The notes beneath the pieces were generated by a model, which searched no databases, was not told the origin of the DNA, and was given only the letters and a program-made list of their open reading frames with translations. From assembly GCA_021774575.1 (NCBI GenBank), contig JAJFIX010000006.1:310001-374000 (forward strand): 64,000 nt of DNA, in the 5' to 3' direction. The translations under genes and the position numbers were made by a program. Positions 26,876 to 40,532 of the stretch are shown here, piece by piece (the stretch's first letter is position 1; each line of letters begins with the position of its first letter). The DNA comes from Alphaproteobacteria bacterium (GTDB lineage Bacteria; Pseudomonadota; Alphaproteobacteria; UBA6615).

Positions 26876-28894
26876 CTAGGCCGCGCCCATGGCTTCTTTG
26901 CGCGCGCTGATCGCCGCATCGGCTTCCCTGCCGACCAATTCAGCGAGATGATCAAATGTGTAGCGATAGGTTCCCGCCCCTTGGGATAGGGACCGCAATT
27001 CGATGATCAAATCGTGCATTTCCGATTGAGGCATATAGCCTTCAACCGTATCCCACGCTTTCCAGCCTTCTTTGGTATCGAACCCGAGAATTTGGCCCCG
27101 TCGGCCGGTGATCAACGTATTGACCTTGCTGGTATGGGCCGAAGGGACATCGATATATACTTTGCAAACAGGCTCTAAAAGCACCGGGCTGCATTTGGGC
27201 ATGCCTTCGCGCATGGCGAGGCTGGCAGCCATTTTGAAGGCCATGTCCGAACTATCTACAGCGTGAAATTGGCCGTCATTCAGACAAACATGGATGTCGA
27301 CCACTGGAAATCCCAGTGGTCCGGCGGTCAAGTAGTCGGTAACCCCATGTTCGACCGAGGGGATATACTGCTTGGGGACTGCGCCGCCGACGATTTTGTT
27401 TTCAAATTGAAAACCAGAACCTCGGGGCAAAGGTCTAATTTCGATATGTACGTCGCCGAATTGCCCATGACCGCCCGACTGTTTTTTGTGTCTTGCATGT
27501 TGGTCGATATGTTTTTTGATTGTCTCTTTGAAGGGGATTTTCGGCGTGTCGCGACCGACTTCAATTTTGTAGCGATCCTTTAAATTATCGAGTGCCGCAG
27601 CCAAGTGAATCTCGCCCTGCCCGTGCAGCACCATTTCGTGGGTGTCGGGGTTATGGTCGAGAATATAGGAGGCGTCTTCTTCGATTAGTTTCCCAATTGC
27701 ACCGGATAATTTAACCTCGTCTTCGCGTTTTTCCGCATGTATGGCCACCGAGTAGACCGGTGGTAAAGTTTCAGGCCAGGACGTATTATCCCGATTGTCA
27801 GGCGTCACTAAGTCACCTGTGTGCAAGTGTTCCATGCGCGCCAGACCGACGATTGTGCCGGGCCCTGCCTTGGAAATCTTGGTTTGGCTCTGGCCGACCA
27901 ATGAATAGAGGCCGCCGACACGGTCTCCGCCTAAGGTGTCGCCTTCTTTAACTTCCCCCGCCCAGATGCGGGCAAGACTAATTTTTCCGGCCTGGAAGGA
28001 ATTATAGGTCTTAAAAACCTGGGCAACGTTCGCCTGGCCGGTATCTATACCCAATCGTTCGGCGGTTTTGGCTACATCCGGAGAATCATGACGCAGCGCT
28101 TTCCACAGGCGGAAGACACCGGATTCGTTCTCGCCACTGCCGATGAGCACCGGCACTGCTTGGTCCGTCGCAACAATGTTGCGCAAATTTTCGTAGATAT
28201 CCGATTTTTCCGGAGTTGTTTCTTCTAATAATTTCTCCAACATATCGTCGTTGAAATCGGCCAGTGTTTCGAGCAATTCCTCGCGCGCCAGCTCGACATC
28301 GTCGGAGAGATTTTCCGGGACGTCAATTTGTTTGGATATCGCGCCTGGCACGTATGTATAGGCGCGCTCCGAAACCAAATCGACATAGCCCGAGATAACA
28401 TCACCTTCGCGAATTGCCATGTGACGCAAGGCTAGTGGGCGCTGGGATGCCGCCTGCAGAGCCGACATGACCTCACCCAAATCGCCGGCTAGGGTGTCGT
28501 CCTTGTTGATGAACAGCATATGGGGAATGCCACCGTCATCGAGAAACTTCAGCAATGGCGCTAAGCTGGCCGCTTTGCTTGGATCGGGATCGCAGACGAC
28601 AACGGCGATATCGGCGACTTGCAACGCGTTGCGGGGATCTTGGGCAAATTCCAACGAGCCTGGGCAATCGAGCAGGGTCCAGGGATCATCCATAAAGGTG
28701 CAATCGGCGGCGGTGATTTCGGTGCTCATCGAACGTGCCTTGGCGACCGGCGACCCGTCGCCGACCATATTGCATTCCTTAACGGTTCCTCGTCGCTTAA
28801 TGGCACCGGCCGCATGGAGCATTGCCTCCATCAGGCTCGTTTTGCCGCTCAAATAGGTGCCGACGATTGCCGCGCAGCGAGGTCCATGAGCCAT
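26876..28894 (-). CDS. Elongation factor G-like GTPase
   Basis: 672 residues. G1 loop GTYLSGKTSL, G3 DCPGSLEF and G4 NKDD. Domains II-V follow as in EF-G (GGAVPKQYIPSVEHGV, domain IV; GRRGQILGFDTKEGW, domain V). The G1 and G3 sequences differ from canonical EF-G (GHVDHGKT, DTPGH), placing it among the EF-G-like paralogues of unknown role that many alphaproteobacteria carry beside the true FusA. Leads a minus-strand run with rnhB, the IalB-like gene and ccrM. Confidence 0.88.
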   Translation of the reverse strand: MAHGPRCAAIVGTYLSGKTSLMEAMLHAAGAIKRRGTVKECNMVGDGSPVAKARSMSTEITAADCTFMDDPWTLLDCPGSLEFAQDPRNALQVADIAVVVCDPDPSKAASLAPLLKFLDDGGIPHMLFINKDDTLAGDLGEVMSALQAASQRPLALRHMAIREGDVISGYVDLVSERAYTYVPGAISKQIDVPENLSDDVELAREELLETLADFNDDMLEKLLEETTPEKSDIYENLRNIVATDQAVPVLIGSGENESGVFRLWKALRHDSPDVAKTAERLGIDTGQANVAQVFKTYNSFQAGKISLARIWAGEVKEGDTLGGDRVGGLYSLVGQSQTKISKAGPGTIVGLARMEHLHTGDLVTPDNRDNTSWPETLPPVYSVAIHAEKREDEVKLSGAIGKLIEEDASYILDHNPDTHEMVLHGQGEIHLAAALDNLKDRYKIEVGRDTPKIPFKETIKKHIDQHARHKKQSGGHGQFGDVHIEIRPLPRGSGFQFENKIVGGAVPKQYIPSVEHGVTDYLTAGPLGFPVVDIHVCLNDGQFHAVDSSDMAFKMAASLAMREGMPKCSPVLLEPVCKVYIDVPSAHTSKVNTLITGRRGQILGFDTKEGWKAWDTVEGYMPQSEMHDLIIELRSLSQGAGTYRYTFDHLAELVGREADAAISARKEAMGAA

Positions 28895-29014
28895 GCCTAT
28901 CTCCCCGATCTAATCTGTCGTCAGAATTCCCCGATTCCGACGCTTAGCGCCGGACGTTTATGGTTCCATTTTGCAGGCAGGTGAGTCCAGAGTAAAAGGC
29001 AAAAAGCTTAACTG

Positions 29015-29869
29015 TCAGTTTCCAAATGCGAGCAATTCCTCGATCACCTTCTCGGGCTCCTCTTCGGCTAAATAGTGGCCGCTTTTTTCAAAGGGCACGC
29101 CGCGGACAAGGTTTTTGGCTTCGGCGCCCCACATCGCCATCAAATCGGCGACCGCCCCGACACCGCCCGAGAGGCCCCATAGCAGCAATAAGGGTTCAGT
29201 TATTTTAAGACCCTTGGCCAGGGCTTCATTATCCAAGGATCGATTTTCGTCAAACATCGCTGTGTAATATTTAAGACCGGCCCTGAGGGCTCCGGGTGCC
29301 GCCATGGCGCTGGCATAGTTGCTGACACAGTCGGCGATGAAGGATTGCGGGTCATGGCATTTATCTTGAAATAAATGGGTCAGAAAAATTTCTTCCCTCC
29401 CTTCGATGAGGTTGGTCGCCATGTCGGTCTTGGCATTAAAGAAAAAATGCCAAAGCCCTCTTGCGGATTGGTCATTGATCCTGCGCAGAGCTTGTTCGTG
29501 GGGGGCCACGTCGAGAATTGCGATGCGGTCGGCCTCGCCAGGAAAATCGAGGGCAAACCGCCGCGCCACCAGACCGCCCCAATCATGGCCTACAATATAT
29601 GGCTTGTTTAGGCCGAGCTCGGCTAATAGGGCGCGAATATCGGCGGCAACTGTTCGCATATCGTAGGGGCCGTCGGGTTTATCGGTCGCCCCCATGCCGC
29701 GTAGATCCGGCGCGATGACCCGATATTTTCTGGCAAGCTCGGGCATGACCTTGCGCCAGGCAAAGGATGTTTGGGGCCAGCCATGAAGCAAAACTATCGG
29801 CCGCCCGTCACCAGCTTCAAGCACTTGATGGTTAATGCCGTTGGCGAAAATGATCCGTGAAATTGTCAT
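29015..29869 (-). CDS. Alpha/beta hydrolase, epoxide-hydrolase/haloacetate-dehalogenase type
   Basis: 284 residues. Oxyanion region LLHGWPQTSFAWRKVMPEL, DLRGMGATDKP and an aspartate nucleophile in IVGHDWGGLVARRFAL. Catalytic His in KSGHYLAEEEPEKV near the C terminus. An Asp nucleophile points to epoxide hydrolase or haloacid dehalogenase chemistry rather than an esterase. The substrate cannot be inferred. Confidence 0.87.
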   Translation of the reverse strand: MTISRIIFANGINHQVLEAGDGRPIVLLHGWPQTSFAWRKVMPELARKYRVIAPDLRGMGATDKPDGPYDMRTVAADIRALLAELGLNKPYIVGHDWGGLVARRFALDFPGEADRIAILDVAPHEQALRRINDQSARGLWHFFFNAKTDMATNLIEGREEIFLTHLFQDKCHDPQSFIADCVSNYASAMAAPGALRAGLKYYTAMFDENRSLDNEALAKGLKITEPLLLLWGLSGGVGAVADLMAMWGAEAKNLVRGVPFEKSGHYLAEEEPEKVIEELLAFGN

Positions 29870-29890
29870 GAGGCATTTTGGGGAAGGGTA

Positions 29891-30349
29891 TTAGGCCTTA
29901 GCCCAGAGCTCCAAAAGTTGGTCAAAACGCTCCGGTCCTTTTTCAAAGACCGTCATGTCTTCGGGTAGCGTGACCCAGGGTTGGGCGCTGCTCGCCCAAA
30001 CCATCGCGACTGGCTTCAACCAGCTTGTGTCGTCAAGAGTGCCCGGACGAAAAACGAAAATGGCATTTGATTGCTCGGGCCGATGATAAATGCGGTTGCC
30101 GCAATCGCCGCAGAAATAGCCAAAAATCCGATTGCCTGCGTCGGAGACCCGCTCGGTTTCTTTTGGTGTTCCCTTGCTGATTTCGAGAGCCGACTGTCGG
30201 ATGATCATCGACATATTAAACGCGCCACCGGCTTGGCGCTGGCATTCGGTGCAGCTACAGGCGTAAACGGTCAGCGGCTCGGCCGTAATCCGGTAACGGA
30301 TAGTGCCGCATTGGCAACCGCCTTCATATGGTGGCGCGGGGATGCTCAT
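29891..30349 (-). CDS. GFA/CENP-V domain protein
   Basis: 152 residues from the ATG at 30349; a longer frame upstream would run into aspartate aminotransferase and is rejected. Zinc-binding cysteines in GGCQCGTIRY, ACSCTECQRQAG and FCGDCGNRIY match the glutathione-dependent formaldehyde-activating (GFA) fold. Such proteins are often annotated as glutathione S-adduct enzymes, though most are of unknown function. Starts six bases beyond the stop of the aminotransferase, so likely co-transcribed. Confidence 0.88.
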   Translation of the reverse strand: MSIPAPPYEGGCQCGTIRYRITAEPLTVYACSCTECQRQAGGAFNMSMIIRQSALEISKGTPKETERVSDAGNRIFGYFCGDCGNRIYHRPEQSNAIFVFRPGTLDDTSWLKPVAMVWASSAQPWVTLPEDMTVFEKGPERFDQLLELWAKA

Positions 30350-30354
30350 GGCCG

Positions 30355-31596
<1,242 letters not shown>

Positions 31597-31663
31597 CTAA
31601 CTTCCGACCCGTCGAGGGGCAAGACGAATACGTGCCGCCAAATGGTCACAATGTCGCAAAGTT

Positions 31664-31680
31664 TTGCCAAGTTTTGGCAA
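31664..31680. promoter_or_regulatory. Palindrome in the leader of the sortase-target gene
   Basis: TTGCCAA at 31664-31670 and TTGGCAA at 31674-31680 form a perfect 7-base inverted repeat around a 3-base spacer. It lies 66 bases before the target gene ATG and 110 bases before the divergent aminotransferase ATG. It could be an operator or a small RNA hairpin; no T-run follows, so it is not a terminator. Confidence 0.35.
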
Positions 31681-31745
31681 TTGTTTCGCCCAGTTGCCGG
31701 AGCTTGATGGCCAGGCTGGGAACTTATGCACGAGAGGGAAACAAA

Positions 31746-34154
31746 ATGAGCAATGTGCTGCGAATGGATGAAAATCAAGTTGCCATGAATATTGACCGCC
31801 GAGAAAAAGCAAACACGAAAGGCCCGCGCCATCGCCGGCGACGAGCGGCCTTACTGGCAAAAATTGGCGGATTGAATATTTTTGTCGTAATCAGCCTGCT
31901 GCTCTATTTCCTCGGCGCAAGTCTCGCTCTCACCCTGTCGGCGCGTTTGGCGCACGCCCAGGAGATCACGCCGCCCGAACTCATCACTCTAGATAAAGTT
32001 GGCCGGGCATCGCTGCTTTATCGAACCACTATTGGCGGCGGTTACCTTTTTGCGCCCGAGATCGAAACCGATGTCACGATAAATATCACCGGCATGACGG
32101 CGCGCACGGTGGTCCGCCAGACTTTCGTCAACCCGACGGAAAGTTGGCTGGAAGGAATTTATGTGATGCCGCTGCCCGATGACAGCGCCATCGACCGATT
32201 GCGTATGCGCATCGGCGACCGGGTTATTCATGCCGAGATCAAGGAACGCGAAGAGGCCCGTAGAACCTATGACGAGGCCGCCGCACAAGGACAACGCACG
32301 GCGTTGATGGAGCAAGGGCGTCCCAACCAATATACAATGTCGGTCGCCAATATTGGCCCAAAGAGTTCGATCACCGTGGAAACCGAATATCAGTCCTTGG
32401 TCAAGGTCGATGACGGGCTGTTTGAAATTCGTTTTCCGATGGCCGTAGCGCCACGCTATTTGCCGCGCAATCCGGGATTGGTGTCGGTATCAACCGATCC
32501 GGGGGTGGAGACCGGTGGTCCCAACGGCAGCGTCGTTTACGCCGATGGTGACGAACCAGATGGCGGCACGCTTCCGGGCGGTCCGGTATTAATCGATGAC
32601 GGGGCGATCAATGTTCACCTGCCGGTGACGATAGCCGTCCATCTCGACGCGGGTTTTGCCCCGTCGGGCCTGATCAGTCCGTTCCACGATATCGATATCA
32701 CCGAGCAGGGCGGCAACGTCTTCGACATTGCCCTTAACGCCGATACGGTAAAAGCAGACCGCGATTTTGTTCTTGAGTGGCAGGTGCCGGTTTCCGGTGG
32801 GCCGACCAGCCATATTTTTACCCAAAACGAAGATGATCAAACCTACATCCTTGGTCTCGTTGTGCCGCCGCAGACAGCAGCTGCGAATGAGACGCCGACC
32901 CCCCGAGATATGATTTTCATTCTCGATAAGTCGGGTTCCATGCATGGCCCGTCACTCGCCCAAGCAAAGTCGGCTCTGGTGACGGCGCTATCGCGCCTGG
33001 GCCAAGGAGATCGGTTCAACTTGATCGCGTTTTCAGACGCAAGTACCGCCGCGTTTCCCGCACCGGTCCCCGCGACGCCGAATAATCTAGCACTTGTTTC
33101 CGGGTTTATCGGTAGCATTGAGGCTGACGGGGGGACTGAGATGGGCCCCGCCCTAGATCTCGCGCTGGCGATGCAATCGGGTAGCGAGCTAAATCACCGG
33201 CTGAAACAAATTGTCTTGCTGACCGATGGGGCTGTCGGCAACGAAGACCAGCTCTTCCAAACCATCGCCGAACGGCTTGGCAATACGCGACTTTTTACCA
33301 TCGGCATTGGATCCGCGCCCAATAGCTGGTTTATGCGTAAAGCCGCCGAAGTCGGGCGGGGAACCTTCACCCATATCGGCAATGTCGATCAGGTCGAAGA
33401 AAAAGTCACTGGGTTGCTGGCAAAACTTGAAGAGCCGGTGCTCACCGATATCGAAGTGACGGTCTCCGGCGACGTGGAATTTGCCATGATCCCGGCGCGC
33501 ATTCCCGACCTATATCGCGGCGAGCCAATTGCGTTTACCGGTGCCCTGGCCGATGCAGGCACCCAAACCATCACGATCAAAGCATTGCTCAACGGTAATC
33601 CGTGGCGAACCTCGCTTGAGCTTGGTCGGCGCGGTGCGGTGGAAAACGACAATGTTGCCCCGATGTGGGCGCGGGCGCGAATTGAACAGGAGCTCGACCG
33701 GCTGATTGACGGGTCGGGCAATGAAACCGATGTCCGCGATACGGTCCTTGCACTGGCGCTCAAATATCATCTAATCAGCCCTTATACGAGTCTAGTCGCG
33801 GTCGAAGAAGAGCGCACCCGGCCCGAGGATGCAGATCTCTTGAGTGTCGATGTGCCACGCAACCTGCCCGAGGGGTGGAGTGCGGAGCATGTATTTGGAA
33901 TTCCCGATCCGAAGCGGGCCGGGAGTGATCGGGCTGACGCTGCCCCGCCACCCTATCAATTGGCGGCCATGGAAATCGCCGATGAAATCGCCGGAGGGCA
34001 AGGCCTTGGTCGAGTTTCGACTGGTGTACCGCAGACGGCAACGGCAGCGGATTTGATGGCGATTATCGGTGGCCTATTGATACTACTAGCCGGTGCGCTG
34101 ACATTGTGGCGTCGCCGACCTGCGGCACCCATGGCTGACGGGAGAGTATCATGA
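31746..34154 (+). CDS. Marine proteobacterial sortase target protein (VIT + VWA)
   Basis: 802 residues from the ATG at 31746, preceded by GAGAGGG. Basic N terminus, then a membrane/signal segment (LNIFVVISLLLYFLGASLAL, cleaved near AHAQ). The VIT domain spans about 65-200 (EGIYVMPLPDDSAIDRLRMR, RRTYDEAAAQGQRTALMEQ). The VWA domain has an intact MIDAS DKSGS at 394-398. The C-terminal sorting signal is VPQTA at 761-765, then a hydrophobic helix and WRRRP. Architecture and adjacency to the sortase match the family known as the sole sortase substrate in Gram-negative genomes. The sorting motif has Val where Leu is expected. Confidence 0.93.
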   Translation: MSNVLRMDENQVAMNIDRREKANTKGPRHRRRRAALLAKIGGLNIFVVISLLLYFLGASLALTLSARLAHAQEITPPELITLDKVGRASLLYRTTIGGGYLFAPEIETDVTINITGMTARTVVRQTFVNPTESWLEGIYVMPLPDDSAIDRLRMRIGDRVIHAEIKEREEARRTYDEAAAQGQRTALMEQGRPNQYTMSVANIGPKSSITVETEYQSLVKVDDGLFEIRFPMAVAPRYLPRNPGLVSVSTDPGVETGGPNGSVVYADGDEPDGGTLPGGPVLIDDGAINVHLPVTIAVHLDAGFAPSGLISPFHDIDITEQGGNVFDIALNADTVKADRDFVLEWQVPVSGGPTSHIFTQNEDDQTYILGLVVPPQTAAANETPTPRDMIFILDKSGSMHGPSLAQAKSALVTALSRLGQGDRFNLIAFSDASTAAFPAPVPATPNNLALVSGFIGSIEADGGTEMGPALDLALAMQSGSELNHRLKQIVLLTDGAVGNEDQLFQTIAERLGNTRLFTIGIGSAPNSWFMRKAAEVGRGTFTHIGNVDQVEEKVTGLLAKLEEPVLTDIEVTVSGDVEFAMIPARIPDLYRGEPIAFTGALADAGTQTITIKALLNGNPWRTSLELGRRGAVENDNVAPMWARARIEQELDRLIDGSGNETDVRDTVLALALKYHLISPYTSLVAVEEERTRPEDADLLSVDVPRNLPEGWSAEHVFGIPDPKRAGSDRADAAPPPYQLAAMEIADEIAGGQGLGRVSTGVPQTATAADLMAIIGGLLILLAGALTLWRRRPAAPMADGRVS

Positions 34155-35035
34155 ATGCTCCCATGAACCTTGCGTGGCACCAAACCCTCGCCCGTCTCTA
34201 TCCGGGAAATGACATTATCGCCTGTACCCTGCGGCGGATCAGGCGGACGCCGCTGCAATGCGCTCTTATCGCCACATTATTTATTGGCGGTGCCGGATTG
34301 GTCGGCGATGCGGTCTATATAAAGGCAAAGGCCGTGGTGGCCCAAGTTCTGCTGCACCGGGCCTGGACCGCAACCCTTGCTGACACGACTAATGGGCCCG
34401 TCAAGCCTTGGCGGCATGCAGATACTTGGCCGGTGGCGCGGCTTGCGGTTGCGCGATTGGGTATCGACCAAATCGTTTTGGCCGGTGCCAGCGGCCGCAC
34501 TTTGGCATTTGGCCCGGCCCATTCCGGCGACAGTGCAATTCCGGGGCGGCCTGGAAATTCTATAATATCGGGTCACCGTGATACGCATTTCAATTTTCTC
34601 GGTGATCTGGAACGAGGCGACGACATCGCGGTAACGACCCGCGAGGGCAAAGCGTTACGATATCGGGTGGTGGCAACCCAGATCGCCCATATCGACGATA
34701 TTGCGATTGATCTGATTACCCCTAGCCGGCAGATGACACTCGTCACCTGCTATCCCCTTGATGCAATCGACCCCGGCACGCCTTGGCGTTACCTGGTCAC
34801 AACTGAATTAATTGCCGACCCCGACCAAATTGCTGACCGACCTTCCGGTAGGACCTGGGACCCAGAGCCCTTTAGGTCTGCTGCTCGCGCCTTCGCCCGC
34901 GCGCCAGCTGATGCCGGAATGCCTCTATTTGGGCAGGACATGGGAGGACTGCCTAATCGTCTGACTCTGCCAGGAGAGCTCGAGCAGACGTTTTATGATG
35001 AGGCCTTCGCCGTACCCCTGGTGAAGGACGGTTGA
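34151..35035 (+). CDS. Class GN sortase
   Basis: 294 residues. N-terminal membrane helix (QCALIATLFIGGAGLVGDAV, about 36-55). Catalytic His142 in SIISGHRDTHFNFL, Cys200 in MTLVTCYPLDAI and Arg213 in PWRYLVTTEL. The ATG overlaps the target-gene stop (ATGA), so the pair is translationally coupled. About 70 residues extend past the core (from IADRP to the end), longer than I expect for this class. It would cleave the VPQTA signal of the upstream protein; the acceptor in a Gram-negative envelope is unknown. Confidence 0.92.
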   Translation: MNAPMNLAWHQTLARLYPGNDIIACTLRRIRRTPLQCALIATLFIGGAGLVGDAVYIKAKAVVAQVLLHRAWTATLADTTNGPVKPWRHADTWPVARLAVARLGIDQIVLAGASGRTLAFGPAHSGDSAIPGRPGNSIISGHRDTHFNFLGDLERGDDIAVTTREGKALRYRVVATQIAHIDDIAIDLITPSRQMTLVTCYPLDAIDPGTPWRYLVTTELIADPDQIADRPSGRTWDPEPFRSAARAFARAPADAGMPLFGQDMGGLPNRLTLPGELEQTFYDEAFAVPLVKDG

Positions 35036-35043
35036 TCAGCAGG

Positions 35044-35130
35044 CCGGCTCGTCTCACTTCTGGCTGACCCCCTCGGCGCTCCTCCACCCCCCCTGGAGCC
35101 TCGAGTTAAAGTCTGGCAGAGACGAGCCGG
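35044..35130. ncRNA. Candidate structured RNA or long hairpin in the sortase-sodC gap
   Basis: In the 303-base gene-free gap 35036-35338, CCGGCTCGTCTC (35044-35055) pairs perfectly with GAGACGAGCCGG (35119-35130). Nested inside, CTCG (35072-35075) pairs with CGAG (35102-35105), and GCTCC (35078-35082) with GGAGC (35095-35099) around a C-rich loop. This gives a branched or interrupted rod of about 87 nucleotides. No T-run follows, so it is not a simple terminator. It could be a small RNA, a 3' stabiliser of the sortase mRNA, or a leader element of sodC. The rest of the gap (35131-35338) shows nothing I can name. Confidence 0.4.
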
Positions 35131-35338
35131 TCACCCCTATTTCACAAGCCGCTGGTTGACGTTGGCGCCGCACTTTTGTTTCCCGGCAGGACGCGGTGGT
35201 GACTTCTTGGTGCGCTCCACATTCTCAGTTTATCGGTCACAATGTTCTGGGCCGAGCTGGAATGTGGGGCGACCTTGCAGCGACGCGCCGAGACGCGCCA
35301 TAGTCTCGAGAGTAATTTAAATTCTATTGGGGCGCGCG

Positions 35339-35908
35339 ATGATACGGGGATTATTAGTAATACTGGCCGGTCTTGTTGTCGGGTGCGCGTCGATAATGGA
35401 CCTCACCTTGGAAGACGCGCTTGGCACGCCCGATATCAATCGGCCTGCACGCGATATGGTGAGCTTTGGGCTATTCGGCCGGGCGGGAGAAACCATCGGT
35501 ATCGCCCAGGCAACCCAAGTATCGGGGGGAATATTCCTAGAGGCGGAAATCACCGGCTTGGCGCCCGGCGAATATGCCATGCATATTCATGAAACCGGCT
35601 ATTGCCAGGCACCCTTCGATGGCGCCGGAGGGCACTTTAATCCGGGTGGAACCGAGCATGGCCAGGATAACCCCCGTGGCGCTCATGTTGGCGATTTGGC
35701 CAATATCCAAGTGCCGGACACGCGCTTTGTAACCATCTCTGCCGTTGCCGCCGGTGCGACGCTGCGGCCCGGTCTAGATGAAAGTCTGGCCGACACCGAT
35801 GGTTCGGCCTTAATCATTCATGATGGGCGCGATGATTATCGCAGCGATCCGGGCGGCAATTCTGGCCCGCGAATTGCCTGCGGCGTGATCTTTCCACCGG
35901 TCGAATAG
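35339..35908 (+). CDS. sodC: Cu/Zn superoxide dismutase, predicted lipoprotein
   Basis: 189 residues from the ATG at 35339. Lipoprotein signal MIRGLLVILAGLVVGC, lipid-bearing Cys16. Metal ligands are complete: His pair in AMHIHETGYC, bridging His in GGHFNPGG, then TEHGQ, AHVGDLANI (His and zinc-binding Asp) and the last Cu ligand in LIIHDGRDDY. The active-site arginine and disulfide partner are in SGPRIACGVIF. Disposes of superoxide outside the cytoplasm; membrane anchoring here would place it beside other envelope proteins such as the sortase target. Confidence 0.92.
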   Translation: MIRGLLVILAGLVVGCASIMDLTLEDALGTPDINRPARDMVSFGLFGRAGETIGIAQATQVSGGIFLEAEITGLAPGEYAMHIHETGYCQAPFDGAGGHFNPGGTEHGQDNPRGAHVGDLANIQVPDTRFVTISAVAAGATLRPGLDESLADTDGSALIIHDGRDDYRSDPGGNSGPRIACGVIFPPVE

Positions 35909-35913
35909 GCAGT

Positions 35914-36321
35914 CTAATCTTTTTGAGAGGGTGGCTCGACGCTTTTGGTTGGGCCTCCGGCCTCTTTCCAGCCGCTAAATCCACCATCGATATGCGCGAC
36001 CGGCCCGAAACCCATATCCTGTAGGGTTCTTGCCGCCAAGGCCGAGCGCCAACCGGCGGCACAAAACAACACATATTTTTTATCCGATTGGGCAAAGACT
36101 TCACGGTGATAGGGGCTCGCCGGGTCGATCCAAAATTCCAACATGCCGCGTGGTGCGTGAACGGCGTCGGGGACCGCCCCCTCGCGCCATAGCTCACGGA
36201 CATCGCGAATGTCGATGAAGACGTGATGCGCGTCCGCGTGCAAGGTGATGGCGTCGGCCACGCTGATCGTCTCAATTTCTTTATTGGCTTCTTCGACTAG
36301 CTTTTCGACCGGGGTAATCAT
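35914..36321 (-). CDS. Rhodanese-like domain protein
   Basis: 135 residues, single rhodanese domain: VFIDIRDVRELWREGAV, HAPRGMLEFWID, the active-site Cys87 in LFCAAGWRSALAA and HIDGGFSGWKEAGGP. Cytoplasmic (no signal). The loop CAAGWR suits a sulfurtransferase. Its start overlaps the stop of the upstream SDR gene by four bases. Confidence 0.9.
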   Translation of the reverse strand: MITPVEKLVEEANKEIETISVADAITLHADAHHVFIDIRDVRELWREGAVPDAVHAPRGMLEFWIDPASPYHREVFAQSDKKYVLFCAAGWRSALAARTLQDMGFGPVAHIDGGFSGWKEAGGPTKSVEPPSQKD

Positions 36322-37100
36322 CGTCCGCCCTTTTCCAGTTCGGCCGGCACACCAGCTCGCCGGCGTAATTCATCATCTTGAACTTTGAGCTCTTGCCCCG
36401 CCAGGTCGTTAGCTTCGGCACTGGTCAACCAGGCAATAACATGTGCGGGCCGGGCCGGGGAATGCAGGGAGGTTTCCGGCAATTTAGCGATTTCGCTGAT
36501 GCCTCGGGCCCGAATATCCTCCTGCATCTTTGTCCAGACTGTGCCCGGCGCAAAGCCGTAAGCGCGGAAGTCTGACCCATGTTCGACATGCAGACATTGG
36601 GTCAGCATAGCCAGGCCCGCCTTGGCCGAACAATAGGCGCTCCAATTTGCCAGGGCGCGATGGGCGGCGCCCGACGTCACATTTATCAGCACACCGTCAT
36701 CGGACGCGCAAAGATGGGCAATGGTCGCCCGCGCCATATAATAAGCGCCGGTCAAATTGATTGCTACGTTGCGGCTCCAAGCGCCGGGGTCGGTTTCAAT
36801 GAGCGGCGATTCGGGCGCAAGAATTCCAGCGTTATTGATCACAATATCGATCCGCCCAAAGGCCGTATGCGTCGCCTCGACAAAGCCGGCAACCTGGCCA
36901 TAGTCGGAGACGTCGCAGGGAAGGGCGATGGCCCGTCCGCCCGCCGTTTCGATATCTGCCGCAACATTGGCGATTTCGGTTATTTTGCGGGCGCATAATG
37001 CAACCGCAACACCCCTTTCGGCCAGCATGCGGGCCGTTTCGGCACCGATACCCCGCCCAGCGCCGGTGATCAGGGCAACACGCGAATTCGGCTGGTCCAT
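36318..37100 (-). CDS. Short-chain dehydrogenase/reductase
   Basis: 260 residues. Cofactor motif ITGAGRGIGAETARMLAERG, NNAGIL, and the catalytic SAYCSAKAG (Tyr-X3-Lys). Classical SDR, NAD(P)H-dependent; the Asp of LPCDVSDYG follows the usual pattern. The substrate is unknown. Coupled to the rhodanese gene downstream. Confidence 0.9.
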   Translation of the reverse strand: MDQPNSRVALITGAGRGIGAETARMLAERGVAVALCARKITEIANVAADIETAGGRAIALPCDVSDYGQVAGFVEATHTAFGRIDIVINNAGILAPESPLIETDPGAWSRNVAINLTGAYYMARATIAHLCASDDGVLINVTSGAAHRALANWSAYCSAKAGLAMLTQCLHVEHGSDFRAYGFAPGTVWTKMQEDIRARGISEIAKLPETSLHSPARPAHVIAWLTSAEANDLAGQELKVQDDELRRRAGVPAELEKGGR

Positions 37101-37118
37101 TGGTCAGTGCTCCAAATG

Positions 37119-37147
37119 AAAACGCCCGAGAGACAAGCTCCCGGGCG
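37119..37147 (-). terminator. Intrinsic terminator of the Bax-inhibitor gene
   Basis: Read on the minus strand: CGCCCG, an inner pairing through GAGCTTGTCTC, then CGGGCG followed by TTTTC. Located 24 bases after the BI-1 stop codon and before the SDR gene, so the two are separate transcription units or only weakly linked. Confidence 0.75.
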
Positions 37148-37170
37148 CTGACGATCAGTATTTCTCTCTG

Positions 37171-37884
37171 CTAGCGATTATTGCCGAACAAGCGCAGGAG
37201 AAAGAGGAACATATTGAGGAAATCGAGATAGAGGGCAAGGGCGCCCATGATTGCCTTTTTGCCCATCACGGCGGCGCCATCACCTTCATAGTAGATCGAT
37301 TTGATCTTCTGGGTGTCATAGGCGGTTAACCCGGCAAAAATAATCACACCGAGGACCGAAATGACAAAATCCATCATTGGGCTGGCGAGGAAGATATTGA
37401 CGACCATCGCGATGATAATGCCAAAAACGCCCATCATCATGAACGTTCCCATGCCGGTCAGGTCGCGCTTTGTCGTGTAGCCAAAGAGGCTCAATCCGGC
37501 AAACATCGTTGCCGTGATGAAAAAGACTTGGCCGATACTACCGAGCTGGTAAATCACGAAAATCGACGACAGAGACAGGCCCATCAATCCGGCAAAGACC
37601 CAATAGGTGATTTGGGCCGCGCCAAAGCTCATCTTATTGATCCGCGCACTCAGGAAAAAGACCATACCGAGCGGGGCAAGTATCACCACCCAGCGCAGCG
37701 GAGAATTAAAAATCATCGCCAATAGTTGGTCTGACTGGGCGACGGTAAATGCGATGGCCCCGGTCAGCGCCAGCCCTAAGGTCATATAGTTATAGACGCG
37801 CAGCATATAGGTGCGCAGTCCCTCATCTATCTCCGCGCCGGCCCGCGAAATGACGCCGGGTTGCGCGCGATAATTGTCTGCCAT
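37171..37884 (-). CDS. Bax inhibitor-1/YccA family membrane protein
   Basis: 237 residues, seven hydrophobic segments. Family features: LRTYMLRVYNYMTLGLALTG at the first helix, SLSSIFVIYQLGSIGQVFF, and the C-terminal AFILFAGLTAYDTQKIKSIYY-like segment with conserved Asp. TMBIM proteins are pH-sensitive calcium-leak channels or protease modulators. Bacterial roles are poorly defined. Followed by an intrinsic terminator. Confidence 0.92.
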   Translation of the reverse strand: MADNYRAQPGVISRAGAEIDEGLRTYMLRVYNYMTLGLALTGAIAFTVAQSDQLLAMIFNSPLRWVVILAPLGMVFFLSARINKMSFGAAQITYWVFAGLMGLSLSSIFVIYQLGSIGQVFFITATMFAGLSLFGYTTKRDLTGMGTFMMMGVFGIIIAMVVNIFLASPMMDFVISVLGVIIFAGLTAYDTQKIKSIYYEGDGAAVMGKKAIMGALALYLDFLNMFLFLLRLFGNNR

Positions 37885-37979
37885 TCTTCTTTCCTCTGGT
37901 AAACGTTACGAAATTCATGCGTTACGGGCGTTATGGGGAAAATATGGCGATTTCCCCGCTCTTAATCAAGTTCCGAGCA

Positions 37980-40532
37980 TTATTCGTTGCGCAACAAAGG
38001 TGCTGCTTTCTGGCTCAATGCTCGGTAAGTCCCGGCCAGCCCCAGTCCGAGCGTTGCCGTGATGCTCGCCAAGACGGTAATGAGGGCCGCAACGGGCAGG
38101 AAAATCCACTCCATATCAAGGATTTGGGTGACTACTGCCCAAGCGGCCAGAGTACCGACGCCCAGTGCTATGAGCGCTGTCACAAAGCCGAGCAAACCAA
38201 ATTCGATGGCGAAGGTCTGGAGAATTTTGAACCGGCTGGCTCCCAGCACTTTGAGAATGACGGCTTCGTATATACGGCGGCGCTGGCCTGCGGCGATGGC
38301 GCCACCGAGTACGAGGATACCGGCGAGCAAGGTTGTCAACGCACTTACCTGCAGGGCCAGAGCAATGCGCCCGATTAACGTGCCGACAGTTTCAATGGCG
38401 TCACGGACACGAACCGCGCTGATATTGGCAAATTCACTGACGATTTTGGTCTGCAGATCTGCTTCGATCTCCGCCTCGGCATAAACAGTGGCGAGGTGGG
38501 TCTGGGGCGCACCGTCGAGAATACCGGGAGAAAAGACCATTAGGAAATTTATACCCAGCGTGCCCCAGTCGATCTGGCGTAAATTGGCAATTTCGCCTTG
38601 CACCTCCCGGCCCAGAATATTGACGGTCATGGTATCGCCAATGCCGACGCCCAATCCGAGAGCGGTCTCCGCGCCCAGGCTGATCAAGGTAGGACCGCGA
38701 TAATCCGATGCCCACCAATCGCCCTCGACGACCTCTGAATTTCTCACCGGGGTCGCCGACCAGGTGATACCGCGATCGCCGCGCAAGGCCCATCGTGCAT
38801 CCGGATCGATGATCGCGTCTTGGGCTCGCACCCCATCGAGGGCGGCAATGCGGCCGCGCAACATCGGTACGGTTTGCAGGTCACTGACCCCGGCATGATT
38901 ATTTACCACCGTCTCAAATCCGGCGAGCTGGTCGGATTGAATATCGATGAAAAAGAACGATGGTGCGGTCTCGGGAATTTGCTCGCGGATGCGATTATCA
39001 AAATTTCCCTCGATCAAGGTGATGGCCACCAATACGGCTAGCCCAAGACCCAAGGACATAACAATCGACGGCGTCGGGGCCCCCGGCCGGTGCAGGTTTG
39101 CGATGGCAAAACGCCAGCTCGTCGACCTAAAACGCGGCAATGACCGGGCACCCCGCATCATTCCGGCGCCACAAAGACGAAACAATATCATCGCCCCGAG
39201 CGCCCCCGAAACAAACCAGATTGCCATGAAACGATTGTCGGCGGTCCCGATGGCAAAACCAACCAAAGCAAGTGCGATGAGCGCAGTGGCAATTATATAG
39301 GCCAAGCGAGGACGCCCGGCGGCAGGCGCGACGAGGTTGCGAAACAGGGTCGCGGCGGGAATTTCCCCGGCCTGAGCGACCGGCCAAACTGTGAAGGTCA
39401 GAGCGGTCAGCAAGCCGAAAACAGCGGCGGTCGCGAGGGGGCGAAAATGGAGACCAATATCGAGAGGCACGGGCAGAAGACGTGACAGGAGGTCGCCGGC
39501 AAGCATCGGCGCCAATGTGCCGAGGGCGGTTCCGAGGATGATGCCAAGCATGGCAATGGCCATAATTTGCAGTAGATATATACGAAAAATTAGGCCCGAA
39601 CTTGCGCCCAGTGATTTGAAGGTCGCAATGACCGCAATTTTGCCTTCAAGATACGCCCGAACGGCATTGGCGACACCGACGCCGCCAACCAGTAGGGCGG
39701 TCAATCCGACAAATGTCAGATATAGAGTCAGTCGACTGACCATGGTTGAAAGGCCTGGAGCCGCATCCTCGAAATTTCGAATGCGCCAGCCAGCCTCGGG
39801 AAAGGTTGCGGTCAGTGTTTCGCCCCAAAGTGCAGGATCTATTTCCGGTCCAAGCAGAACCCGATAATCGTAGGTGATTAAGCTGCCGGGCTGGACCAAT
39901 TCGGTTGCCGCCATGGCGTCACCGGCGATCATTGCTCGTGGGCCGAGGGTAAAACCGCCGCTGGAGATGCGATCGGGCTCGCGGTCGATGACTCCGCGCA
40001 CTTCGAACTTGGCCTCGCCGATATTGATTTGCGAGCCTAATTCGATATCGAGCCGGTCCTTGAGATCAGGCTCGATCACCGCGCCCCAGACGCCGTCGAC
40101 CTGGGCCAGCGCCGCCTGCAAATCACCACCATCCACGAGGGTGACCGCACCGTATAAAGGATAGTTGCCGTCGACGGATTTTAACTCGACCAGGGTGGAT
40201 CGCAAATCTTGGGGTGAGGCGTCGACCCGCGCCATGGCACGCATCGTCAAGGTTTCGGAAACGGTCGCATTCGCACCCATGGTGGAGATTTGTTCGGGCT
40301 CAGCAGGACGATGGATGAGGCGAACCGAGACATCACCGCCTAAAATGTTGCGCGAGTCCGCAGTGATGCCGCTTCTAACCGACTGGGATACGGATCCAAC
40401 CGCGGCGATAGCCGCAACGCCGATGGTCAGGCAGGCCAGAAAAATCCAAAAACCTTTCAGCCCACCCCGCAATTCGCGCCGCGCTAGCTTTGCCGCGAGG
40501 CGCCAGCCTTGACCCTGCACCATTGCGCTCAC
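37980..40532 (-). CDS. ybbP: ABC transporter permease, YbbP/FtsX type
   Basis: 850 residues, about ten membrane helices in two FtsX repeats: one ahead of IGVAAIAAVGSVSQSVRSGI at the N terminus and one near the C terminus (TTLLAGILVLGGAIAAGQRRR). Large extracytoplasmic domains lie between. Overlaps ybbA by four bases (ATGA). With ybbA it forms an MacB/LolCDE-type exporter, which in E. coli neighbours tesA exactly as here. Substrate unknown, possibly a lipid or lipoprotein. Confidence 0.9.
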   Translation of the reverse strand: MSAMVQGQGWRLAAKLARRELRGGLKGFWIFLACLTIGVAAIAAVGSVSQSVRSGITADSRNILGGDVSVRLIHRPAEPEQISTMGANATVSETLTMRAMARVDASPQDLRSTLVELKSVDGNYPLYGAVTLVDGGDLQAALAQVDGVWGAVIEPDLKDRLDIELGSQINIGEAKFEVRGVIDREPDRISSGGFTLGPRAMIAGDAMAATELVQPGSLITYDYRVLLGPEIDPALWGETLTATFPEAGWRIRNFEDAAPGLSTMVSRLTLYLTFVGLTALLVGGVGVANAVRAYLEGKIAVIATFKSLGASSGLIFRIYLLQIMAIAMLGIILGTALGTLAPMLAGDLLSRLLPVPLDIGLHFRPLATAAVFGLLTALTFTVWPVAQAGEIPAATLFRNLVAPAAGRPRLAYIIATALIALALVGFAIGTADNRFMAIWFVSGALGAMILFRLCGAGMMRGARSLPRFRSTSWRFAIANLHRPGAPTPSIVMSLGLGLAVLVAITLIEGNFDNRIREQIPETAPSFFFIDIQSDQLAGFETVVNNHAGVSDLQTVPMLRGRIAALDGVRAQDAIIDPDARWALRGDRGITWSATPVRNSEVVEGDWWASDYRGPTLISLGAETALGLGVGIGDTMTVNILGREVQGEIANLRQIDWGTLGINFLMVFSPGILDGAPQTHLATVYAEAEIEADLQTKIVSEFANISAVRVRDAIETVGTLIGRIALALQVSALTTLLAGILVLGGAIAAGQRRRIYEAVILKVLGASRFKILQTFAIEFGLLGFVTALIALGVGTLAAWAVVTQILDMEWIFLPVAALITVLASITATLGLGLAGTYRALSQKAAPLLRNE

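What the first reader, a model, noticed from the sequence alone, without database searches (positions are those of the whole stretch)
31746..35035. Complete Gram-negative sortase pair with coupled translation
Sortases are rare in Gram-negative bacteria, and the acceptor and purpose of this single-substrate system are unknown. Target and sortase overlap by ATGA, and the MIDAS motif and all catalytic residues are intact, so it seems functional.
Basis: partly seen in the sequence, partly recalled or inferred. Interest (0 to 1): 0.5.

Follow-up and report, generated by a model that had tools for sequence, protein, structure and literature searches.

The report
Known Gram-negative sortase and sole substrate
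This is an intact copy of a known two-gene set in which a membrane enzyme (a sortase) probably trims the tail of one partner protein and fixes it to the cell envelope; it is ordinary in kind, although what the protein is fixed to is still unknown.

Summary
Window 31746-34154 (+) encodes a VIT-VWA protein (TIGR03788, 683 bits, cut-off 552) and 34151-35035 (+) a class GN sortase (TIGR03784, 198 bits, cut-off 158), overlapping by ATGA. Catalytic and MIDAS residues are intact. The genome has one sortase; one protein carries the matching tail signal, within the limits of the profile. The type is in print: PMC3237569 (section 12 read) reports this dedicated Gram-negative sortase with its adjacent vault-like target, and homologues with PEP-CTERM or GlyGly-CTERM tails instead. 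It is not very rare: 42 of 385 alphaproteobacterial genomes, each with the target, and 37 of 388 in an overlapping phylum sample. Added here: the signal is roughly [L/F/Y]-P-x-[T/G]-A-T (window VPQTAT); the four exosortase T genes over cut-off sit beside the same cargo, with PEP-CTERM-like tails and no GN sortase in the genome; a type II secretin passes its cut-off in 1 of 13 GN-sortase genomes, not in the window's. I favour anchoring to periplasmic diaminopimelate peptidoglycan; the acceptor is unproven.

The parts
30355..31554 (-). aspartate aminotransferase-like gene, divergent neighbour found upstream of the pair in many alphaproteobacterial loci; probably not part of the mechanism
   Evidence: NF004769 580 bits, below its 617 cut-off; divergent and upstream in 19 of 34 class-survey loci with 2.5 kb or more upstream, within 400 bases of the target frame in 9 of them
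31746..34154 (+). VIT-VWA sortase target (802 aa from this ATG; frame open from 31527)
   Evidence: TIGR03788 683 bits, cut-off 552; VIT and VWA in Pfam
31746..31958 (+). N-terminal export signal with long Arg-rich n-region; likely cleavage after LAHA
   Evidence: read by eye; helix 28-69 in the model; no signal-peptide program run
32064..32390 (+). VIT domain
   Evidence: PF08487 E 1.4e-34, residues converted to the 31746 start
32907..33365 (+). VWA domain; MIDAS DxSxS at 32925-32939, Thr at 33135-33137, Asp at 33225-33227
   Evidence: PF13768 E 2e-17; invariant columns
34026..34043 (+). sorting motif VPQTAT (P4 to P2'), predicted cleavage Thr764/Ala765
   Evidence: P762, A765, T766 at 90% or more in A6; A4; motif table
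34044..34118 (+). hydrophobic helix and WRRR tail of the sorting signal
34151..34154 (+). ATGA stop/start overlap
34151..35035 (+). class GN sortase (294 aa): N-terminal membrane helix, sortase barrel
   Evidence: TIGR03784 198 bits, cut-off 158; model, blocks 31-220 at mean pLDDT 86-97; matches to solved sortases of several classes, Z up to 18.9
34574..34576 (+). catalytic His142
   Evidence: invariant
34748..34750 (+). catalytic Cys200
   Evidence: invariant; Ser in one relative outside that set, L163
34787..34789 (+). catalytic Arg213
   Evidence: invariant; 90% or more
34817..35032 (+). about 72-residue C-terminal tail of the sortase, mostly low-confidence in the model
   Evidence: 96 residues follow from TC.P to the end, against at most 50 in the other frames measured except L207 with 95; model

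Best explanation
A dedicated class GN sortase system. The VIT-VWA protein is exported by Sec and held in the inner membrane by its C-terminal helix and Arg-rich tail. The membrane-bound sortase attacks the carbonyl of Thr764 in VPQT/AT with Cys200, releases the tail helix and transfers the protein to a primary amine. I think the likeliest acceptor is the side-chain amine of meso-diaminopimelate in lipid II or peptidoglycan, leaving a periplasmic, wall-bound MIDAS protein; expression from one operon keeps enzyme and sole substrate in step. Shown by sequence: family membership of both, intact catalytic and MIDAS residues, matched tail signal, strict pairing, one detectable substrate. Inferred: cleavage site, transpeptidation, acceptor, periplasmic location, ligand binding, co-expression. 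Confidence in 'dedicated sortase-substrate pair' about 0.97; in the diaminopimelate acceptor about 0.45.
For: Family scores. All 42 genomes of 385 with a clear GN sortase (E 1.7e-35 or better) carry the target: 41 adjacent on one contig, one (G370) split by contig ends; in two of the 42 (G071, G242) only target fragments at contig edges. 75 of 80 named loci have the target on the same strand just upstream; of the other five, three lie at contig ends and two keep an orphan sorting signal beside the sortase. Catalytic and MIDAS residues. Tail motif: P762 nearly invariant in both target alignments, A765 and T766 in the second. Nearest solved sortase by sequence is 2ln7, B. anthracis class D; that organism's SrtC (class D by PMC4498605, passages) cuts LPNTA between Thr and Ala and uses m-Dpm as nucleophile (PMC3297441, passages). 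GspD passes its cut-off in 1 of 13 GN-sortase genomes, not in the window's, which speaks against surface delivery by T2SS there. In gammaproteobacteria the pair often has PdsO nearby; the one example scanned matches Pal/OmpA models in its C-terminal half (146 bits to pdsO, just under its cut-off of 152).
Against: Homologous cargo sits beside exosortase T elsewhere and, in print, carries GlyGly-CTERM tails (PMC3237569); the rhombosortase product VesB in Vibrio cholerae carries glycerophosphoethanolamine (PMC6219818, passages). That points to a lipid, not the wall. Similarity to class D is below the class D cut-offs (79 of 165 and 78.6 of 140 bits), and structure does not single class D out; a second class D enzyme prefers LPQTGS (PMC4498605). 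The window signal has Val at P4, alone among 111. Lack of GspD does not exclude other export routes, and one of the two relatives from the same family tested (G208) has it. No experiment on any member was found (open-licence papers only); one transcript change in Ensifer is listed (PMC6637203).
Confidence: 0.5

Rival explanations
1. Same sortase chemistry, but the acceptor is the amine of an aminolipid such as phosphatidylethanolamine, so the sortase makes a lipid-anchored protein held in the inner membrane, or carried onward to the outer membrane.
For: The same cargo family lies beside exosortase T in all four genomes where exosortase T passes its cut-off, and carries GlyGly-CTERM in others (PMC3237569). 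Rhombosortase product carries glycerophosphoethanolamine (PMC6219818); archaeosortase is modelled to use archaetidylethanolamine (PMC7157517, passages). If the job is the same, the anchor may be too.
Against: The nearest characterised sortases use peptidoglycan amines (PMC3297441). Surface display through T2SS is unlikely in 12 of 13 genomes tested, though an inner-membrane lipid anchor would not need it. Cargo homology does not prove a common anchor.
Confidence: 0.27
2. The sortase acts mainly as a processing protease: it cuts the tail and the protein is released free into the periplasm or medium (water or a small amine as acceptor).
For: No acceptor has been identified; in the alphaproteobacterial loci I saw no conserved gene likely to make one.
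Against: The catalytic set is kept across 42 rows, and sortases as a class are transpeptidases (established knowledge); simple release would need no dedicated sortase.
Confidence: 0.15
3. The window copy is decaying or inactive.
For: P4 is Val where the family has mostly Leu, Phe or Tyr (1 of 111); the sortase has a long, disordered tail. Decay does occur in the class: G300 has a split target and Cys for the catalytic Arg, G200 keeps only a sortase remnant beside the aminotransferase gene, and L163 has Ser for the catalytic Cys.
Against: Both frames are open, scores are over cut-off, all catalytic and MIDAS residues are intact; P4 is variable in the family.
Confidence: 0.06

Closest known systems
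Class GN (marine proteobacterial) sortase TIGR03784 with target TIGR03788
   Same: Both members over curated cut-offs, adjacent genes, VIT-VWA cargo, one detectable substrate, tail signal; described in PMC3237569 section 12
   Different: Val at P4 of the signal; long sortase tail; no dedicated histidine kinase or PdsO over cut-off in the genome
Pds cassette of gammaproteobacteria and some others (TIGR03785 kinase, TIGR03787 regulator, TIGR03789 PdsO)
   Same: Same sortase and target
   Different: The window has no such neighbours; in the clusters they fall almost wholly outside the alphaproteobacterial class survey, where a divergent aminotransferase gene is common instead
Exosortase T (NF033770) with PEP-CTERM-like VIT-VWA protein
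   Same: Homologous cargo, dedicated adjacent membrane enzyme, tripartite tail
   Different: Unrelated enzyme family and PEP instead of LPxTA motif; no GN sortase in those four genomes
Class D sortases (B. anthracis, 2ln7)
   Same: Nearest solved structure by sequence; LPNTA cleaved T/A
   Different: Below class D cut-offs; Gram-positive, sporulation-linked substrates
Inter-alpha-trypsin inhibitor heavy chains and PARP4 VIT-VWA region
   Same: VIT-VWA arrangement; best solved matches by sequence (PARP4 261 bits, ITIH4 232 bits) and by fold (ITIH1)
   Different: Animal proteins; the heavy chain's C-terminal ester link to a polysaccharide (recalled, no call) is a different chemistry

Membership tests
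Class GN sortase (TIGR03784) | score over curated cut-off 158.25 | tested here: met
   198.2 bits
Class GN sortase (TIGR03784) | His-Cys-Arg catalytic set | tested here: met
   H142, C200, R213
Class GN sortase (TIGR03784) | dedicated adjacent target | tested here: met
Class GN sortase (TIGR03784) | transpeptidase activity | not testable with these tools
   needs experiment
Marine sortase target (TIGR03788) | score over curated cut-off 551.65 | tested here: met
   683.4 bits
Marine sortase target (TIGR03788) | VIT and VWA domains | tested here: met
Marine sortase target (TIGR03788) | C-terminal sorting signal, only one in the genome | tested here: met
   E 4.9e-13; five weaker matches lack the motif; the profile missed known tails at E 1e-4 in 7 of 30 GN-sortase genomes, so a divergent second substrate is not excluded
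Pds cassette | dedicated histidine kinase TIGR03785 | tested here: not met
   best 149 bits, cut-off 612
Pds cassette | PdsO TIGR03789 | tested here: not met
   best 54.7 bits, cut-off 152
Pds cassette | response regulator TIGR03787 | not tested
   genome searches went to other questions
Class D sortase | score over NF033746 cut-off 165 or NF058671 cut-off 140 | tested here: not met
   79 and 78.6 bits
Class D sortase | LPxTA-type substrate motif | tested here: met
   commonest family motif LPQTAT, window VPQTAT
Exosortase/PEP-CTERM | exosortase in the genome (PF09721) | tested here: not met
   no match in G000

The most novel reading that the evidence does not exclude
Class GN sortases make lipid-anchored proteins: they put VIT-VWA proteins on an aminolipid, which is why exosortase T and rhombosortase can take over the same cargo. 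Specificity would rest on P-x-[T/G]-A-T, with the P3 Pro and P2' Thr as fixed points and not the classical P4 Leu or P1 Thr.
Probability: 0.22. Interest if true: 0.65.

Novelty: new member of a known kind. Interest (0 to 1): 0.27.

Why it matters
What a Gram-negative cell fixes with a sortase, and to what, is open. This locus is a clean one-enzyme, one-substrate case without the dedicated kinase or PdsO and without a type II secretin over cut-off, so a single knockout plus mass spectrometry could answer it. The exchange of sortase and exosortase T around one cargo gives a natural comparison that could also bear on the unknown exosortase acceptor.

Tried and rejected
Considered that the pair might belong to an anti-phage or RNA-related element: no PADLOC match for either protein, no Rfam match over threshold at 28000-38000.

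Considered that the sortase-exosortase swap was new: it is not. PMC3237569 section 12 (read) shows LPXTG, PEP-CTERM and GlyGly-CTERM tails in this very family. The pairing with exosortase T in Alphaproteobacteria was not found in print, which cover open-licence PubMed Central papers only; a 2012 exosortase paper is not held, and NCBI's own note to NF033770 was not seen.

Considered regulation by the dedicated two-component system: no kinase over cut-off. Promoter scan no better than shuffles, 2 found against 2.1; 7 terminator-like sites against 4.0.

Considered that the -4 overlap proves translational coupling: rejected.

The first tail alignment (A3) was badly cut, the window row lost its motif; replaced by A4. 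A4 rows other than the window's were picked by the pattern P.[TGS][AGS][TS], so its constant P and T are partly by construction. The motif table also rests on a regular expression that allows only P or A at P3, T, G or S at P1, A, G or S at P1'; three of 114 tails (L113, L142, L144) did not fit. The full-length alignments are the independent support.

Literature: listings. PMC3237569 was already in the listing and was opened only later; searches gave nothing on this family. Passages only: PMC6219818, PMC1569441, PMC11980579, PMC7157517, PMC3297441, PMC4498605, PMC6637203. PMC6637203 lists an Ensifer adhaerens homologue of Sinorhizobium meliloti SMc01580, annotated as marine proteobacterial sortase target, among genes with changed expression.

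Fold comparison did not single out class D: classes A, C, D, E and F all appear at Z 16 to 19.

Tree: 46 targets; L111, L114, L115 and L124 dropped beforehand as split or truncated; quick search, SH-aLRT only, midpoint root, and a warning of long branches among the four unpaired homologues, so the direction of the swap is not established. A5 used 51 and A6 39 of 70 and 62 rows at hand (plus the window; 11 of the 80 loci had been left out as cut, duplicate, without target or, for L163 and L191, without TC.P). A4 used 35 of 114 tails. The 13 genomes were chosen from the 42 for completeness and spread, not at random.

Controls (14 named genomes): TIGR03788 rang below cut-off in 9, over it in 0; TIGR03784 in 3, over it in 0; exosortase T in 0; GspD in 6, over it in 2. 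Exosortase T also gave many weak matches below cut-off (31 and 62 genomes with any match at E 0.001 in 385 and 388, of which 3 and 1 over cut-off), some in GN-sortase genomes; I read these as other exosortases and did not examine them. G211 has a GN pair and a further exosortase (PF09721).
Full report
What is there. The window lies in one contig of a 3.5 Mb, 46-contig genome, 96.9% complete. I call it alphaproteobacterial because contigs from its class survey (G372, G087) reappear in the named collection under alphaproteobacterial titles (L167, L212). On the plus strand, 31746-34154 encodes an 802-residue VIT-VWA protein and 34151-35035 a 294-residue sortase; stop and start overlap as ATGA. 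NCBIfam names them marine proteobacterial sortase target (TIGR03788, 683 bits, cut-off 552) and class GN sortase (TIGR03784, 198 bits, cut-off 158). It is the only sortase-domain match in the genome.

Are they intact? Sortase His142 and Cys200, and K60-A61, W87 and D91 ahead of the barrel, are invariant over 42 rows, Arg213 in 90% or more. In a second set of 51 rows all of these are invariant, with the selection noted in the observation check; one relative left out of it, L163, has Ser for the Cys. The AlphaFold2 model is confident in its core and aligns to solved sortases of classes A, C, D, E and F. The target's MIDAS (D394, S396, S398, T464, D494) is invariant over 38 and 39 rows; its model (mean pLDDT 78.9) matches inter-alpha-inhibitor heavy chain 1 best, and its profile matches PARP4 and ITIH4.

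How common and how strict is the pairing? In 385 genomes of the class the GN sortase occurs clearly in 42 (E 1.7e-35 or better; 35 over cut-off; two further genomes with fragments at E 4.5e-5 and 7.9e-4) and the target over cut-off in 41. Forty genomes have both by these two measures; the 41st target genome, G007, has its target running into a contig end; the other two sortase genomes, G071 and G242, hold target pieces at contig edges beside the sortase. In the phylum sample, which shares some genomes with the class sample, 37 of 388 match at E 0.001, 33 over cut-off. Of these 80, 75 have the target just upstream. Of the other five, L145, L171 and L194 end at contig edges; L184 and L217 keep an orphan tail signal next to the sortase, and in L217's genome the target body lies elsewhere.

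The signal. Among 114 distinct targets, 111 fit the motif pattern: P4 L 77, F 14, Y 9, G 5, others 6; P3 P 107; P1 T 76, G 33, S 2; P1' A 99; P2' T 101 (the pattern itself limits P3, P1 and P1'). Independently, P762 is nearly invariant in both full-length alignments and A765 and T766 in the second. The window's VPQTAT is the only Val at P4. A profile of 35 tails, run on 32 genomes, gives 23 matches with E below 1e-4, each in a different genome; in the window's genome the only match that includes the motif is the target. Seven of the 30 GN-sortase genomes gave no such match, so the profile has limits. The two exosortase T genomes in the set had nothing better than E 0.137.

A swap of the sorting enzyme. 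Three genomes without GN sortase (G091, G112, G237) hold a VIT-VWA homologue at 457-463 bits, below the TIGR03788 cut-off, directly beside exosortase T. Their tails look like PEP-CTERM by eye; the profile TIGR02595 recognises one of them, L117. Exosortase T passes its cut-off in exactly those 3 of 385 genomes. In the phylum sample it passes in 1 of 388 (G624), again beside such a protein (435 bits, PEP-like tail by eye) and without GN sortase. On a tree of 46 targets, 39 sortase-linked rows form one side of a branch (SH-aLRT 96) and the three exosortase-linked rows another (100). The principle is in print (PMC3237569 section 12).

Neighbourhood. Clusters of kinase-like, regulator-like and PdsO-like neighbours occur in 32, 23 and 17 loci, mostly of the named set; one example of each was scanned and gave TIGR03785 and TIGR03787 over cut-off and TIGR03789 just under; the rest of the clusters were not checked. 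The window genome has no kinase or PdsO over cut-off. In the class survey a divergent aspartate aminotransferase-like gene lies upstream in 19 of 34 testable loci, within 400 bases of the target frame in 9 and about 2 to 5.3 kb away in the other 10, as well as in the window; I take this as inherited order. G200, of the same genus as G087, keeps that gene and only a sortase remnant beside it.

Where does the product go? T2SS is the way out in the rhombosortase model (PMC6219818). GspD passes its cut-off in 1 of 13 GN-sortase genomes, G208, a relative of the window's own family; the window genome's only match is a 135-bit partial secretin. I therefore favour a periplasmic product. The nearest solved relative is a class D sortase, and B. 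anthracis SrtC cleaves LPNTA between Thr and Ala and uses diaminopimelate (PMC3297441); Gram-negative peptidoglycan offers the same amine (established knowledge). Hence the wall is my first choice of acceptor and an aminolipid, suggested by the exosortase and rhombosortase parallels, the second. Neither is shown.

Verdict. A sound observation of a known system: new member of a known kind, with two small additions (motif statistics, clean exosortase T exchange in these samples) and one constraint (no T2SS secretin over cut-off in 12 of 13 genomes).

Noticed in passing
window 34817-35032: The sortase ends in a long tail (96 residues from TC.P to the end), disordered in the model; the other frames measured have at most 50, except L207 with 95 (the two tails were not aligned). 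Codon-position GC there is 0.73/0.53/0.57 against 0.63/0.51/0.60 in the core, so whether it is selected is unclear.
   Followed up: partly
L163 (Kiloniellaceae MAG, sortase beside a target with LPRGAT): The catalytic Cys is Ser (TSYP for TCYP) in an otherwise complete sortase: decay, sequencing error or an odd enzyme.
   Followed up: partly
window 35044-35130: Perfect 12-base inverted repeat with 63 bases between the arms just after the sortase stop; not a typical terminator.
   Followed up: partly
window 35327-35908: Cu/Zn superoxide dismutase gene with a lipoprotein-like start (by eye) downstream of the pair; no match to it in the other fetched loci (tblastn E 1e-6).
   Followed up: partly
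L284 4082-5432 (genome G550): A second, class D-like sortase (125 bits to NF058671, cut-off 140) overlapping a small protein without NCBIfam match that ends in LPSTAS, a helix and RRRK: another one-to-one sortase pair in a proteobacterium, without VIT-VWA.
   Followed up: partly
L111 (genome G300): The pair looks degraded: target split, catalytic Arg of the sortase replaced by Cys.
   Followed up: partly
L184 5333-6513; L217 5539-6609: Sortases beside an orphan sorting signal without the VIT-VWA body; for L217 the body is elsewhere in the assembly (G386:C7), so rearrangement or misassembly. Part of L184 is masked.
   Followed up: partly
L119 10111-12225; L122 8193-10400: More distant VIT-VWA homologues in genomes that also have the GN pair (G211, G079), ending in a Gly-rich stretch, helix and Arg cluster, like a further sorting-signal type.
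   Followed up: no
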